Source of the DNA: Streptomyces sp. MMBL 11-1
GTDB lineage: Bacteria > Actinomycetota > Actinomycetes > Streptomycetales > Streptomycetaceae
NCBI RefSeq assembly: GCF_028622875.1
Contig: NZ_CP117709.1
Span: forward strand, 682,001-746,000
Direction of reading: 5' to 3'
Length of the DNA stretch: 64,000 bases
Part shown: positions 25,861 through 33,169 of the stretch, in pieces
How positions within the stretch are numbered: the stretch's first letter is position 1
How the letters are laid out: each line of letters opens with the position of its first letter
Position numbers and translations under genes: made by a program
The notes under the pieces: model-generated
Seen by the model: only the letters and a program-made list of their open reading frames with translations
What the model was told of the DNA's origin: nothing
Database searches by the model: none

Positions 25861-26523
25861 TTACGAGGCGAAGAGGCGGACCGGCCAGGCGGCGTGCGCC
25901 TCGGCGGTGATGTCGAGGAGCGGGGCCGAGGCGGCGGGCAGGGCGTCGATGCCCTGCCGGGCGGCCTCGGCGGCCTGTTCGGCGACCCGGTCCAGCTCGG
26001 GGGCGAGCCGGGCGAGTACGGCGGTGGCGTGGAAGGGGTCGAGGGAGAGGAGCCGGACGACGGCGGTGGCGGGTCCGCTGACGGTCTCGTACGCGACACA
26101 GTGGGCGGCGTCCACGGGGTCCAGGCCCGCCGACCGTGCGGTGAGCCCGAGGACGACCGGCTGGTGGGCGCCGCGCGGTCGGGCCGCCGCGAGCGCGTCC
26201 AGTTCGGGGCTCGGCCAGGTGGCGCGGGCGGCCCGCATCAGCTGCCGGCCCAGCTTGCGCGCGGTGGTCCGCAGGGCGGGCGAGGGTGTACGGGCGTCGG
26301 CGGCCTCGTCGAGGGCGATCGGGTCGAGGCCGTGGGCCGCCGCCGCGGCGAGGGCGGCGGCGGTGAGGCCCGACGTGTGCAGCCGGCCCCGGCAGAAGTC
26401 GGCGAGGGAGTCGGCGTCGCGGACACGGCCCCCGGCGACGGCCGGTTCGGCGCCGCCGGAGTGGGCGTGGCCACCGGCGGGGAACCGGCCGTCGGAGAGG
26501 ACGAGGAGAGCTGCGCGTGACAT
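25861..26523 (-). CDS. ureF: urease accessory protein UreF
   Basis: UreF (220 residues) is an all-helical activator that couples UreG to the UreD-urease complex. The start SRAALLVLSDGRFPAGGHAHSGG is the typical UreF N-terminus (LLQLSDSAFPVGGFAHS in relatives), and the helical C-terminus ends in AHAAWPVRLFAS. It follows ureC by 15 bases. Confidence 0.9.
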   Translation of the reverse strand: MSRAALLVLSDGRFPAGGHAHSGGAEPAVAGGRVRDADSLADFCRGRLHTSGLTAAALAAAAAHGLDPIALDEAADARTPSPALRTTARKLGRQLMRAARATWPSPELDALAAARPRGAHQPVVLGLTARSAGLDPVDAAHCVAYETVSGPATAVVRLLSLDPFHATAVLARLAPELDRVAEQAAEAARQGIDALPAASAPLLDITAEAHAAWPVRLFAS

Positions 26524-26538
26524 GACGGCGGCCGGCCC

Positions 26539-28260
26539 TCAGAAGAGGAAGTAACGCTGCGCCATGGGCAGTTCCGCCGCCGGGGCCGGCTCGACCGGAT
26601 CGCCGTCGATGGTGACGGCGAAGCTGTCGGGGTCGACGTGGACCCGGGGCAGGGCGTCGTTCTCCCGCATGTCCGCCTTGGTGACCCCCCGGGTGCTGGT
26701 GATCGGCACGAACCGCTTGTGCAGGGCGAGGCGTTCGGGCAGCCCGTCCTCGATGGCGGCAGTGGAGACGAAGTTGAACGAGCTGTGTGCGGCCGCTCGC
26801 CCCAGGGCGCCGAACATCGGCCGGGGCAGGACCGGTTGGGGCGTCGGGATGGAGGCGTTGGCGTCGCCCATCTGTGCGTGGGCGATCTGGCCGCCCTTGA
26901 TGACGGTCTGGGGCTTCACGCCGAAGAACGCCGGGTCCCAGAGGACGAGGTCGGCGAGCTTGCCGGTCTCCACCGAGCCGATCTCCCGGTCCAGTCCCTG
27001 CGCGACGGCCGGGTTGATGGTGTATTTGGCGACATAGCGACGGACCCGGTGGTTGTCGGCCCGCCCGTCCCCGGGCAGGGCTCCGCGCCGCTTCTTCATG
27101 ACGTGGGCGGTCTGCCAGGTCCGCAGGATCACCTCGCCGATCCGCCCCATGGCCTGGGAGTCCGAGGAGATGATCGAGATGGCCCCGAGGTCGTGCAGGA
27201 TGTCCTCGGCCGCGATGGTGGAGGGCCGGATCCGGGACTCCGCGAACGCCAGGTCCTCGGGGACGGTGGGGTTCAGGTGGTGGCAGACCATCAGCATGTC
27301 GAGGTGTTCCTCGATGGTGTTGACGGTGTGCGGCCGGGTGGGGTTGGTCGAGCTGGGCAGGACGTAGGGCTCGGAGACCACGCTGATGATGTCGGGGGCG
27401 TGCCCGCCGCCCGCCCCCTCGGTGTGGTACGCGTGGATCGTCCGGCCGGCGATGGCGGCGAGGGTGTCGGCGACGAACCCGGCCTCGTTGAGGGTGTCCG
27501 TGTGGATGGCGAGCTGTGCGCCCGTCCGCTCGCAGACGGTGAGGCAGGCGTCGATGACGGCGGGCGTCGCGCCCCAGTCCTCGTGGATCTTGAATCCCAG
27601 GGCGCCGCCGCGCAGTTGGGAGTGCATGGCCTCCTGCGACATCGTGTTGCCCTTGCCGAGCAACCCGATGTTGACCGGGAAGGTCTCCAGCGCCTCGAAC
27701 ATCCGGGCCAGGTGCCAGGGCCCCGGGGTGATGGTGGTGGCCTTGGTGCCCTCGGCGGGTCCCGTGCCGCCGCCGACGAGGGTGGTGATGCCGCTGGAGA
27801 GCGCCTGGTCGATGAGGGTGGGTGAGATGAAGTGGACGTGGGCGTCGACCGCCCCGGCCGTGAGCAGCTTCCCGTTGCCCGCGATGATCTCGGTCTCCGG
27901 GCCGATCACCAGGTCGGGGTGGACGCCGTCCATGGTGTCCGGGTTCCCGGCCTTGCCGATGCCGGTGATCCGGCCGTCCCGGATGCCGATGTCGGCCTTG
28001 ACGACGCCCCAGTGGTCGATGACGACGGCCCCGGTGATGACGGTGTCGGGCGCGCCCTCGGCCCGGGTGGTGCGGGCCTGCCCCATCGACTCGCGGATCA
28101 CCTTGCCGCCGCCGAACACCGCCTCGTCGCCCGCGTGTCCGGGGCCGCCCGAGCGGTCCTCCTCGATCTCGACGAGCAGATCGGTGTCGGCGAGCCGGAT
28201 CCGGTCGCCGGTGGTGGGTCCGAAGAGATCGGCGTACACGGCTCTCTTGAGGTCAGGCAT
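26539..28260 (-). CDS. ureC: urease alpha subunit
   Basis: UreC (573 residues) carries the nickel centre that hydrolyses urea to ammonia and carbamate. The nickel-ligand HVHF lies near residue 138. The carbamylated-lysine segment [13 protein letters not shown] is near residue 216, [11 protein letters not shown] near 246, and the mobile flap [22 protein letters not shown] near 317, with the catalytic His. Everything required for activity appears intact. ATG 28260 has GGAGGTGG upstream and overlaps the ureB end by 8 bases; GTG/ATG further up at 28269 is less likely. Confidence 0.97.
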
Positions 28261-28564
28261 CGAGACCACCTCCGGTTTCGCCGCGCAGGCCGGGGACGAC
28301 GCGGCGGCCGGTGAGGGGGACGAGTTCGACGTCGGCGGGGATGCCGGGTTCGAAGCGGACCGCCGTGCCGGCGGCGATGTTCAGCCGCAGCCCGTGGGCG
28401 GCGGCGCGGTCGAAGCGCAGTCCGGGGTTGGCCTCGGCGAAGTGGTAGTGGGAGCCGACCTGGACGGGGCGGTCGGCGGCGTTGAGGACGGTGAGGCGGG
28501 TGACCGTCCGCCCTGTGTTGAGGGGGATGTCCCCGTCCCCGTACAGGATCTCTCCGGGAATCAT
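28253..28564 (-). CDS. ureB: urease beta subunit
   Basis: UreB (103 residues) is the small structural subunit. [19 protein letters not shown] is the canonical start, and [20 protein letters not shown] contains the family signature. ATG 28564 follows GGGGAGG at 7 bases; the frame extends to 28594 but overlaps ureA. The gap to ureA is 13 bases. Confidence 0.95.
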
Positions 28565-28577
28565 CGGCGCCTCCCCG

Positions 28578-28880
<303 letters not shown>

Positions 28881-30837: not shown

Positions 30838-31122
30838 TCAGGCGTCCCGACCGTCGTGGGGGCGGTGCTCGGCGGCGATGCCGAACCTGCGCCGTTCGCC
30901 CTGAGCGGATGACGCGGAGTCGATCGAGGAGACCGAGCTGATCACCCGCTCCTCGGCGGCGGTTTCCTCCGCTTCCAGTCGTTGCAGGTCAGCGGCGGAA
31001 ACCAACGCGACGAGCGGCTTGCCGTGACGCGTCACCACGACACGTTCACCGCCGTAGACAACACGGTTGATCAGTTCGGCGAGCTCCGCCCGTGCTTGCG
31101 TCACCGGAATCTCGTAGGCCAT
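30838..31122 (-). CDS. orphan Phd/YefM-family antitoxin or repressor
   Basis: This 94-residue protein begins [20 protein letters not shown], then [20 protein letters not shown], the Phd/YefM DNA-binding and dimer domain. The tail (about residues 55-94) is polar and probably disordered, the region that wraps a toxin in true antitoxins. No RelE, YoeB or Doc toxin gene is adjacent, so it may act only as a repressor. It is divergent from the clpP-like gene with TGTACA-type repeats between them. ATG 31122 lies 7 bases after a near-consensus TATGAT; ATG 31134 is an alternative. Confidence 0.75.
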
Positions 31123-31129
31123 AGTCCCC

Positions 31130-31158
31130 ATCATAACCTTCTGTACGTCCTGTACATT
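31130..31158. promoter_or_regulatory. TGTACA-type operator and -10 box between yefM-like and clpP-like genes
   Basis: TGTACG (31142-31147) and TGTACA (31151-31156) are spaced by 3 bases; TGTACA is the core recognised by YefM-type proteins in other bacteria. On the minus strand TATGAT (31130-31135) lies 7 bases before the ATG at 31122, so the repeats would overlap the -35 region of the antitoxin promoter. Confidence 0.55.
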
Positions 31159-31207: not shown

Positions 31208-31813
31208 ATGATCCGCCCCGCCGCCCGCTACGTACTGCCGGAGTTCACCGAGCGCACCGCGACCGGAACCCGGACCCTGGACCCGTACTCCAAGCTGCTG
31301 TCCGAGCGGATCGTCTTCCTCGGGAGCCCGATCGACGACATCGCCGCGAGCGACCTCATCGCCCAGCTCATGTACCTGGAGCACGCCGATCCGGACCGGC
31401 CCCTGTCGCTCTACATCAACTCCCCCGGCGGCACGTTCCAGGCGATGGCGGCGGTCTACGACACGATGCGGTTCCTGACCTGCGAGGTGGAGACCTTCTG
31501 CCTGGGGCAGGCGGGCTCCTATGCGGCGGCCCTGCTGGCCGCCGGGGCGAAGGGGCGCCGACATGCGCTGCCCGGCGCGCGGGTAGTCATCCAGCAGCCC
31601 GCGATGGAGGAGCCGATGCGGGGCCAGCCGTCCGACCTGGAGATCCACGCGCGCGAACTGGTGCGCACCCGCGAGATGTTCGCGGCCATGCTGGTCCGGC
31701 ACACGGGCCGGACCGCGGAGCAGATCACCGCCGACATCGAGCGCGACACCATCCTCGACGCCCATGCCGCCCTCGCCCACGGGCTGGTCGACCACGTCGT
31801 GGACAGCCGCTGA
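31208..31813 (+). CDS. ClpP-family protein with the catalytic histidine replaced by glutamine
   Basis: This 201-residue protein has the ClpP fold from [19 protein letters not shown] through [20 protein letters not shown]. The nucleophile serine is present in [14 protein letters not shown] (about residue 104). The segment that normally reads RVLIHQP is RVVIQQPAM (codons at about 31581-31607), so the catalytic His is Gln. The Asp position ([19 protein letters not shown]) is kept. It could be inactive, like ClpR, and act within mixed ClpP rings, or it could be a repurposed scaffold. ATG 31208 has AGGAGAG upstream. A small gene follows after 37 bases. Confidence 0.85.
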
Positions 31814-31850
31814 CTCTCCCGGCCGCCGTACGACGCGAGGTGAAACGCCG

Positions 31851-32156
31851 ATGGAGCCACCCGACTTCCCGCCCCTGCCCGCACTGACCCGCGCCGAGGG
31901 CGAGTTCGTCGACTGCTATCTGGCCGTGCTCGACCAGGTGGGCCGGATCAACCCGGCCCATGGCAGCGACACCTACAGCGCCCTGCGGGCGGCCCAGGCC
32001 CTCGCCTCCCGGGCGGCGGCCCTGCGCGACGCCCTGGCCGTGATGCACGAGCGCGGCGAATCGCGGATCCACGCCGCCACCCTGGCGCGGGCGCTGCGCG
32101 TCCTGGACGGGGAGCGCCGGGCGGGCCGGATCGCGATGCCGCCGCCCGCGAACTGA
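31851..32156 (+). CDS. small helical protein linked to the ClpP-like gene
   Basis: This 101-residue protein of no recognised family is rich in Ala and Arg and predicted mostly helical (LTRAEGEFVDCYLAVLDQVG; ALRAAQALASRAAALRDALA; AATLARALRVLDGERRAGR). It has no signal or membrane segment. ATG 31851 has GAGGTGA about 8 bases upstream, and the 37-base gap suggests an operon with the ClpP-like gene. It may be an adaptor or partner of that protein (inference from position only). Confidence 0.6.
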   Translation: MEPPDFPPLPALTRAEGEFVDCYLAVLDQVGRINPAHGSDTYSALRAAQALASRAAALRDALAVMHERGESRIHAATLARALRVLDGERRAGRIAMPPPAN

Positions 32157-32698: not shown

Positions 32699-33169
32699 AT
32701 GTCTGCGCAGGTTCATGTCCCGTCTCTGTTCGCCCGGGTCGGTACGGCCTCGGTACTCACCCTGGCCGTGACGTCCACGATGCTGGCGCCCGGTCTGGTG
32801 AGCGATGCCGAGGCCGCCTCCCACTCGACGAAGGCCCTGAAGGTCGCCGCGTCGAAGAAGGGGGCTCCCTACAAGTACGGAGCGGCCGGTCCCAGCCGCT
32901 TCGACTGTTCGGGGCTGACGGTCTATTCGTTCAAGAAGGCCGGCAAGAAGCTTCCCCGCACGGCACAGCAGCAGTACAACAAGACCCGCCACATCGGGAA
33001 GTCGCAGCGCAAACGCGGCGACCTCGTCTTCTTCCATTCCGGGCGCAGCGTCTACCACGTGGGCATCTACGCCGGGGCCGGGAAGATCTGGCACTCCCCC
33101 AAATCGGGGGACGTGGTGAGACTGGCCAAAATCTGGTCCAAGAGCGTCTGGTACGGACGGGTCCGCTGA
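32699..33169 (+). CDS. secreted NlpC/P60 cell-wall endopeptidase
   Basis: This 156-residue exported peptidoglycan hydrolase has a signal peptide (FARVGTASVLTLAVTSTMLA) that cleaves near DAEAAS. The NlpC/P60 domain shows YKYGAAGPSRFDCSGLTVYS (catalytic Cys near residue 72), GDLVFFHSG, VYHVGIYAG (catalytic His near residue 120) and KIWHSP. The lack of extra domains suggests a small soluble lytic factor. ATG 32699 follows GAAGGG at the 3' edge of the c-di-AMP riboswitch, which gates its expression, presumably in step with growth or germination. Confidence 0.9.
   Translation: MSAQVHVPSLFARVGTASVLTLAVTSTMLAPGLVSDAEAASHSTKALKVAASKKGAPYKYGAAGPSRFDCSGLTVYSFKKAGKKLPRTAQQQYNKTRHIGKSQRKRGDLVFFHSGRSVYHVGIYAGAGKIWHSPKSGDVVRLAKIWSKSVWYGRVR

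What the first reader, a model, noticed from the sequence alone, without database searches (positions are those of the whole stretch)
31208..32156. ClpP paralogue lacking the catalytic histidine, in an operon with an unknown helical protein
Seen: RVVIQQP where ClpP has RVxIHQP, with the serine (GQAGSYAA) and aspartate (ERD) positions kept. The change is not random decay, because the rest of the fold is intact. Known: ClpR-type subunits with incomplete triads sit in mixed ClpP rings. Inference: it may be a regulatory ring subunit or a non-proteolytic scaffold, with the 101-residue product as adaptor.
Basis: partly seen in the sequence, partly recalled or inferred. Interest (0 to 1): 0.75.

Follow-up and report, generated by a model that had tools for sequence, protein, structure and literature searches.

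The report
Protease-dead ClpP5 with antitoxin-type switch
In Streptomyces bacteria a spare subunit of the Clp protein-shredder has often lost its cutting residues while the rest of it stays conserved, and it sits beside a small helical partner gene and a DNA switch of the antitoxin type, so it is probably a structural or regulatory ring rather than a cutter.

Summary
Observation confirmed: 31208-31813 encodes a 201-aa ClpP with Gln129 for the catalytic His; Ser104 and Asp180 remain. It is the ClpP5-type, P2-like paralogue. The 120 best-listed relatives all carry Gln, so no sequencing error. But Gln is not fixed: of 116 distinct orthologues only 26 keep Ser-His-Asp, while dN/dS is 0.07-0.08 with or without it. 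Sampled controls: ClpP1 16/16, ClpP2 16/16 and ClpP3 33/33 intact; ClpP4 0/33. The 101-residue gene follows clpP5 in 114/116 loci but survives, under purifying selection, beside degenerate or missing clpP5 (11 of 12 loci examined), so it is not just a ClpP5 adaptor. Best reading: a Phd-controlled, proteolytically silent Clp ring plus a small helical protein. Assembly, silence and repression are inferred. Prior art notes one triad-lacking S. coelicolor clpP.

The parts
31208..31813 (+). clpP5-type ClpP paralogue, 201 aa, P2-like; S104, Q129 (for His), D180
31592..31594 (+). CAG codon (Gln129) in the catalytic-His position
   Evidence: sequence; alignment; Gln in all 120 best-listed relatives
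31517..31519 (+). codon of the retained catalytic Ser104
31745..31747 (+). codon of the retained catalytic Asp180
31851..32156 (+). HP: 101-aa protein, three main helices predicted (mean pLDDT 71.3); no Pfam, NCBIfam, PHROGs or PADLOC family at threshold, no confident PDB fold match
30838..31134 (-). divergent Phd/YefM-family gene (98 aa), no recognised toxin gene beside it
   Evidence: PF02604 5.9e-14, TIGR01552 9.2e-16; divergent in the loci where it was found; neighbours
31142..31156 (.). palindrome TGTACgtcctGTACA between the divergent genes, predicted Phd operator, followed by TTTTTTAC

Best explanation
The locus is a conserved Streptomyces module: an orphan Phd/YefM-family DNA-binding protein, its palindromic operator, a P2-type ClpP paralogue (ClpP5) and a small helical protein (HP). 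SHOWN by sequence: in this genome ClpP5 lacks the catalytic His; across the sampled orthologues its triad is eroded in many ways while the rest of the protein stays under purifying selection; the palindrome is nearly invariant and comes and goes with Phd. INFERRED: ClpP5 folds and assembles as a ClpP2-like heptameric ring that cannot hydrolyse, stacks on the catalytic ClpP1 ring (the only P1-type ring found in this genome) and serves as an alternative docking or gating ring, as ClpP2 does in the housekeeping ClpP1P2 core, where ClpP2's own catalysis is dispensable. Phd binds the palindrome and represses both directions; if Phd is labile, as related antitoxins are, the module is switched on when Phd is degraded. 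HP is co-expressed and probably acts on Clp proteins, but not on ClpP5 alone.
For: Triad tally in 116 distinct ClpP5s: 26 SHD, 90 broken; fewest changes on the tree: His column 20, Ser 13, Asp 7, intact/broken 10. dN/dS 0.082 in a triad-intact set against 0.070, 0.066, 0.083, 0.084 in triad-broken sets. Same pattern in the paralogous pair: ClpP3 33/33 SHD, ClpP4 0/33 (31 SGD, 1 SQD, 1 SAE; 32 loci from Streptomyces, one from another family); ClpP1 16/16, ClpP2 16/16 SHD. Published division of labour in Streptomyces: ClpP1 catalyses, ClpP2 docks the ATPases, ClpP2 Ser dispensable (PMC9765437, passages); ClpP2 catalysis non-essential in M. tuberculosis (PMC9067928, abstract and passages). The positions I take to correspond to those mutated in ClpP2 there (S94, Y96, Y116) are ClpP2-like in ClpP5: residue 67 Ser in 97/116, 69 Tyr in 116/116, 89 Phe or Tyr in 102/116. 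Own genome: three ClpP matches. Palindrome with 2 mismatches or fewer 116/116 upstream, 0/116 inside and 0/116 downstream; the exact 15-mer once in this genome (near-matches were not searched genome-wide); YefM sites have TGTACA cores (PMC7730913, PMC3303803, passages). Phd in 95 of 95 ClpP5-bearing genomes among 121 (hand count). In 12 further loci the site is present in the 7 with Phd and absent in the 5 without a close Phd.
Against: No experiment on ring assembly, docking or activity of this protein was found or possible. Conservation does not single out the surfaces the model needs: mean column entropy is 1.12 for eight pocket positions and 1.02 for residues 130-158 (the handle, numbering recalled) against 0.78 for the whole protein; only the N-terminal stretch 7-20 (0.37) is clearly better kept. 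Pocket residue 119 (E. coli F112 position, recalled) is His in 54 of 116, all triad-broken, where own ClpP2 has Met, which may weaken docking. ClpP5 dN/dS is 3 to 5 times that of ClpP2 (0.099 vs 0.021 in 7 matched genomes), and clpP5 is degenerate or absent in 11 genomes that keep HP, so it is dispensable in some lineages. 26 of 116 ClpP5s keep the triad. In S. cattleya, ClpP1, 3, 4 and 5 of that paper's numbering each shortened RelB2 half-life with ClpX in E. coli (PMC4989188, passages); its numbering cannot be mapped to mine (its ClpP4 and ClpP5 have consecutive locus tags). The two GTAC cores here are 9 bp apart, not the 12 bp reported for YefM. HP model is of modest confidence and unmatched.
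Confidence: 0.5

Rival explanations
1. ClpP5 is a gene on its way out: relaxed selection first erodes the triad, then the gene decays.
For: clpP5 incomplete, frameshifted or missing in 11 of 12 loci examined, out of 36 HP-positive genomes without a strong ClpP5 match; higher dN/dS than ClpP2; seven residues seen in the His column; pocket and handle more variable than the protein average.
Against: dN/dS stays 0.07-0.08 after triad loss and equals that of triad-intact ClpP5; the frames of the 116 are open over the full domain; Gln in all 120 best-listed relatives; residues 7-20 and Arg179 (116 of 116) kept while the triad varies; palindrome kept.
Confidence: 0.23
2. ClpP5 is a poison or trap subunit: it enters ClpP1 or ClpP1P2 barrels and lowers or redirects proteolysis, with Ser-to-Ala forms acting as natural traps.
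For: 24 of 116 ClpP5s have Ala for the nucleophile, the change made to inactivate ClpP1 and ClpP2 in PMC9765437 (passages); S. hawaiiensis ClpP(ADEP) shows that an extra ClpP can disrupt ADEP-activated ClpP1 complexes (PMC12607617, passages).
Against: No data on assembly; the Gln variant of this window keeps Ser.
Confidence: 0.13
3. HP is a dedicated adaptor of ClpP5.
For: Follows clpP5 in 114 of 116 loci and 290 of 291 genomes (hand comparison).
Against: HP is open, with dN/dS 0.060, in 10 loci with degenerate or missing clpP5; HP relatives follow a ClpP2-like gene with intact triad in G058 and G016.
Confidence: 0.1
4. A toxin-antitoxin module: HP is the toxin of the Phd-family antitoxin and ClpP5 helps degrade the antitoxin.
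For: Phd family; S. cattleya ClpPs shorten the half-life of the RelB2 antitoxin in E. coli (PMC4989188, passages).
Against: HP has no toxin-family match; five genomes keep HP but have no close Phd; genes are divergent, not one operon.
Confidence: 0.05
5. ClpP5 is still a protease with a non-standard triad (Ser-Gln-Asp or a rearranged base).
For: Ser104 and Asp180 are kept here; Listeria ClpP1 with Asn for Asp aligns to an active triad in complex with ClpP2 (PMC9765437, passage).
Against: The His column holds Q, R, D, S, E and T as well as H, and 25 of 116 lack Ser.
Confidence: 0.06

Closest known systems
Streptomyces and mycobacterial ClpP2 (P2-type ring of ClpP1P2)
   Same: Closest by sequence (54.5% to own ClpP2, 38.9% to own ClpP1; best PDB relative M. 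tuberculosis ClpP2 5dzk, 1.5e-62); three pocket residues ClpP2-like; ClpP2 catalysis dispensable (PMC9765437; PMC9067928)
   Different: ClpP2 keeps Ser-His-Asp in 16/16 and dN/dS is 0.024; ClpP5 has lost the triad in 90/116 and has its own operon and putative regulator
Streptomyces ClpP4 (of the PopR-controlled clpP3-clpP4 operon)
   Same: P2-type paralogue without the catalytic His (0 of 33 SHD)
   Different: Beside ClpP3 and, in print, PopR-controlled (PMC9765437, passages); His replaced by Gly in 31 of 33; ClpP5 has no P1-type gene in its operon
ClpR of cyanobacteria, plastids, apicoplasts
   Same: ClpP homologue without the catalytic triad (PMC7966870, passages)
   Different: Nearest relatives of ClpP5 by sequence are actinobacterial ClpP2s, not ClpR (no ClpR put in a tree); triad is eroding variably within one orthologous group
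YefM/Phd antitoxins with autorepressed operons
   Same: Family domain and GTAC-core palindrome near the start of the gene
   Different: No recognised toxin beside it; divergent partner is a clp gene; core spacing 9 rather than 12 bp

Membership tests
ClpP family (PF00574) | CLP_protease profile over the whole domain | tested here: met
   210.3 bits, cut-off 20.2
Active ClpP peptidase | Ser-His-Asp triad | tested here: not met
   S104-Q129-D180
NCBIfam TIGR00493 clpP equivalog | score over curated cut-off 308.6 | tested here: not met
   200.8 bits; of 11 families listed only NF009205 is over its cut-off (245.8 against 228)
ClpR-type subunit | lacks the catalytic triad in whole or part | tested here: met
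   description of ClpR from PMC7966870, passages
ClpR-type subunit | built into a mixed ClpP/R core | not testable with these tools
   no assembly data
ClpR-type subunit | common descent with cyanobacterial/plastid ClpR | not tested
   no ClpR sequences put in the tree; nearest by sequence are actinobacterial ClpP2s
Streptomyces ClpP5 | orthologous to proteins named subunit 5; not paired with another clpP gene | tested here: met
   P0036 (96% identical) is named 'subunit 5' by its source; the other two ClpP matches of the genome lie 1.6 Mb away
Type II toxin-antitoxin (Phd/YefM) | antitoxin domain | tested here: met
   PF02604, TIGR01552 over cut-off
Type II toxin-antitoxin (Phd/YefM) | cognate toxin gene in the same operon | tested here: not met
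   the next ORF beyond phd is convergent and matches an ABC-2 transporter family, the one after is TetR-like; HP has no toxin-family match

The most novel reading that the evidence does not exclude
The module is a Clp-capacity sensor: the labile Phd-family repressor is itself a Clp substrate, so a change in Clp proteolysis changes Phd level and resets a switch that swaps the P2-type docking ring (ClpP5 for ClpP2) and makes HP, a new class of small Clp effector acting also on the housekeeping core. Repeated loss of the triad then marks a ring selected for recognition only.
Probability: 0.2. Interest if true: 0.82.

Novelty: new variant of a known kind. Interest (0 to 1): 0.6.

Why it matters
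Why some bacteria keep several ClpP rings is open. This locus gives a natural experiment: in the Streptomyces sampled, P1-type subunits keep the triad (ClpP1 16/16, ClpP3 32/32) while accessory P2-type ones have lost it (ClpP4 32/32, ClpP5 90/116), although housekeeping ClpP2 has not (16/16 intact). It supports division of labour inside the Clp barrel from evolution alone, names a small protein family (HP) with no recognised relative that is tied to clp genes, and suggests that an antitoxin-family protein has been recruited as regulator of a clp operon. All three are testable in laboratory Streptomyces. Prior art: d'Andrea et al. 2022 already name S. coelicolor among species with one clpP allele lacking residues critical for activity (PMC9067928, passage).

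Tried and rejected
Sequencing error: rejected. Gln fixed in the orthologous group: rejected. Mere pseudogene: not supported for the full-length copies, though real decay exists elsewhere. HP as known family or fold: Pfam, NCBIfam, PHROGs and PADLOC gave nothing at threshold; AlphaFold2 mean pLDDT 71.3; Foldseek against PDB gave 172 matches with E up to 10, none at 0.001 or better. HP outside Streptomyces: 0 of 39 other-genus genomes; (order, 293 genomes) 3 of 9 genera, the two others in the same family. Link between an intact ClpP5 triad and presence of ClpP4: 11 of 13 against 4 of 33 (Fisher p 6e-6; 46 loci whose genomes lay in the range, 6 others left out; ClpP4 presence typed by hand), but the tree holds only 1 to 3 independent pairs, so this may be shared ancestry. 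Order of loss: Ser loss did not go with His loss in 6 independent pairs.

Literature, by listing unless said: ClpP5 plus Streptomyces 4 papers, passages of all four opened; ClpP5 plus Streptomyces plus catalytic triad 3 of the same; SCO1252, a locus tag recalled from memory, 0; ClpP3 plus ClpP4 plus Streptomyces 14, of which passages of the same four were opened; ClpP plus pseudoprotease 16, 15 listed, none on Streptomyces by title; ClpR plus ClpP plus catalytic triad plus inactive 15, two opened; antitoxin plus divergent plus clpP plus Streptomyces plus YefM 1, on S. aureus by title; orphan antitoxin plus transcription plus Phd 7, none on Streptomyces by title. No paper describing the Phd-ClpP5-HP module was seen in these; subscription journals are mostly not held.

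Rows dropped and bias: 132 ClpP5 loci collapse to 116 distinct proteins, 16 duplicates dropped before tallies. The loci are the best-scoring matches of three searches (30, 22 new and 80 loci), so they lean towards ClpP5s close to the window and are not an even sample of the genus. The ClpP3/ClpP4 tally uses the 30 best of 96 matching genomes plus L140, L239 and L240; L240 is from another family of the order; L237 and L238, the same places as L241 and L243, were left out. G004's ClpP3 (L140) stands among P1-type proteins and again. The 12 HP-only loci were those whose places were printed with strong HP matches, out of 36 such genomes. HP dN/dS uses 10 of these 12 (L162, L167 left out).

Full report
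CHECK. The window comes from a Streptomyces whose nearest named proteins are of the S. griseus/anulatus group (the genome itself is unnamed). It holds a 201-codon ClpP ORF at 31208-31813 and a 101-codon ORF 37 bases further on. Pfam CLP_protease matches at 2.8e-62. Against M. tuberculosis ClpP2, the best relative of solved structure (5dzk, 1.5e-62), the alignment runs without gaps and puts Gln opposite the catalytic His; Ser and Asp are kept. All 120 proteins listed (the best 120 of 7749 matches) have Gln at this place, so a sequencing error is excluded.

WHICH CLPP. The own genome has three ClpP matches: adjacent clpP1-clpP2 and this one. The protein is 54.5% identical to its own ClpP2 and 38.9% to ClpP1; relatives are named ClpP, one of them 'subunit 5'. 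I call it ClpP5; the name rests on that label and on its standing apart from a second clpP gene. In 392 Streptomyces genomes 291 have a match at 1e-72 or better.

THE TRIAD ERODES, THE REST DOES NOT. I aligned 116 distinct ClpP5 proteins from 132 loci. Ser/His/Asp states: SQD 43, SHD 26, AQD 14, SRD 10, AHD 5, SDD 4, ASD 3, and eleven others once each. By column: Ser 91 S, 24 A, 1 P; His 61 Q, 31 H, 14 R, 4 D, 3 S, 2 E, 1 T; Asp 108 D, 8 others. On a tree built without these three columns the fewest changes are 20 (His column), 13 (Ser), 7 (Asp), 10 (triad intact or not), and 6 if the His column is read only as His or not (quick method, 49 of 114 inner branches weak, so the counts are approximate). 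The His column ranks 28th of 201 in entropy, Ser 85th, Asp 98th; the neighbour Gln130 is invariant; 46 positions are invariant. Codon models give dN/dS 0.082 for 16 triad-intact ClpP5s and 0.070, 0.066, 0.083 and 0.084 for four triad-broken sets (21, 10, 15 and 5 sequences); ClpP2 0.024 (16), ClpP1 0.040 (8); in seven matched genomes ClpP5 0.099 against ClpP2 0.021. So triad loss does not start decay, but ClpP5 is less constrained than ClpP2.

A RULE IN THE SAMPLE. Control sequences: ClpP1 16 of 16 SHD, ClpP2 16 of 16; two ClpP2-like second copies (L136, L138) and one further ClpP5 (L153) are SHD too, and the ClpP3 and ClpP4 of G004 are SHD and SQD. In clpP3-clpP4 pairs from 33 loci, ClpP3 is SHD in 33 of 33 and ClpP4 in 0 of 33 (31 SGD, 1 SQD, 1 SAE); 32 loci are Streptomyces, the SAE one is from another family. 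Thus P1-type partners keep catalysis and accessory P2-type partners tend to lose it. This fits experiments by others: in Streptomyces ClpP1 supplies the proteolysis, ClpP2 docks ClpX, ClpC1 and ClpC2, and a ClpP2 Ser-to-Ala change costs nothing (PMC9765437, passages); in M. tuberculosis ClpP2 catalysis is non-essential and ClpP2 is taken as a docking scaffold, and S. coelicolor is named there among species with one allele lacking critical residues (PMC9067928, abstract and passages). What seems new here is the recurrent and varied loss within one orthologous group and the P1/P2 contrast across ClpP1 to ClpP5; I saw no paper stating it in the listings or the passages opened.

THE 101-RESIDUE PROTEIN (HP). 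It follows clpP5 in 114 of 116 loci (none found beside L090 and L093). In the 392-genome sample HP is found in 326. Comparing the two printed lists by hand: 290 genomes have both, 1 has ClpP5 only (G264), 36 HP only, 65 neither. I looked at 12 of the 36, those with strong HP matches: full-length open clpP5 of 57% identity in one (L167); incomplete, frameshifted or absent clpP5 in eleven. In ten of these loci HP is open and its dN/dS is 0.060. In G058 and G016 an HP relative (50-57% identical, by alignment) follows a ClpP2-like gene with an intact triad, in a set phd - thioesterase-domain ORF (PF00975) - clpP - HP. HP therefore is tied to clp genes but does not need ClpP5. Its predicted fold is three main helices of modest confidence with no confident PDB match.

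THE SWITCH. Divergent from clpP5 lies a 98-aa Phd/YefM-family gene. The next ORF beyond it is convergent and matches an ABC-2 transporter family, so no toxin is recognised. Phd is within the fetched stretch in 104 of 116 loci, within 200 bp in 95. Between the genes lies TGTACGTCCTGTACA (31142-31156). With up to two mismatches it is upstream of clpP5 in 116 of 116 loci (exact in 90), and in 0 of 116 equal stretches inside and 0 of 116 downstream of the gene. In the own genome the general palindrome occurs nine times, this exact form once; near-matches were not searched genome-wide. Twelve loci have no Phd in the stretch but keep the site (exact in 11); six of these lie in searchable genomes and all six have a close Phd elsewhere, 1.7 to 17 kb off or on another contig (74-87% identical). 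Among the 12 HP-only loci the site is present in the seven with Phd (0-2 mismatches) and absent in the five whose genomes lack a close Phd (three without any match, two with weak matches of 2e-4 and 7e-4). In two (L161, L164) no clpP5 is found but Phd, site and HP remain. The two ClpP2-like modules carry the exact site too. In 121 genomes Phd is found in 99; by hand count all 95 ClpP5-bearing ones are among them, against 4 of the 26 others. YefM of E. coli and relatives binds paired palindromes with TGTACA cores 12 bp apart (PMC7730913, PMC3303803, passages); here the GTAC cores are 9 bp apart, so the geometry differs and binding is a prediction.

MECHANISM. I take ClpP5 here to be a silent P2-type ring that stacks on ClpP1, made under Phd control with HP. 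In favour: the N-terminal stretch (residues 7-20, mean entropy 0.37 against 0.78 overall), Arg179 (116/116), and three pocket residues that I take to match those needed for docking in ClpP2. Against: eight pocket positions taken together (1.12) and residues 130-158 (1.02) are more variable than the protein as a whole, and residue 119 is His in 54 of 116, all triad-broken. Steps not shown: assembly, docking, repression, Phd turnover, HP function.

VERDICT. Observation confirmed; interpretation partly supported; best filed as a new variant of a known kind (ClpP subunit with incomplete triad).

Noticed in passing
L140, L239-L270: ClpP4 of the clpP3-clpP4 pair lacks the catalytic His in 33 of 33 loci (31 Gly) while ClpP3 keeps the triad in 33 of 33.
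   Followed up: partly
L136 (1625-4093), L138 (3047-5409): Second module: phd divergent from a thioesterase-domain ORF (PF00975), a ClpP2-like gene with intact triad and an HP relative, with the same exact palindrome.
   Followed up: partly
L161, L164: No clpP5 is found but Phd, palindrome and HP remain side by side.
   Followed up: partly
L011, L024, L028, L047, L048, L050-L055, L085, L086, L088, L091, L098, L103, L105-L107, L109, L110, L114, L122: 24 of 116 ClpP5s have Ala for the catalytic Ser, the change used in the laboratory to inactivate ClpP.
   Followed up: no
L004-L055: ClpP5 keeps its triad mostly in genomes that also have ClpP4 (11 of 13 against 4 of 33), possibly shared ancestry.
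   Followed up: partly
L005, L010, L076, about 860 bp upstream of clpP5: A similar ORF of about 170 codons lies between Phd and clpP5 in these three; the palindrome stays next to clpP5.
   Followed up: no
window 32699-33169: NlpC/P60 cell-wall hydrolase gene downstream of HP (PF00877, 6.8e-27); link to the module not tested.
   Followed up: no
window 25861-28594: Urease genes on the minus strand: UreF, urease alpha and urease beta (Pfam).
   Followed up: no
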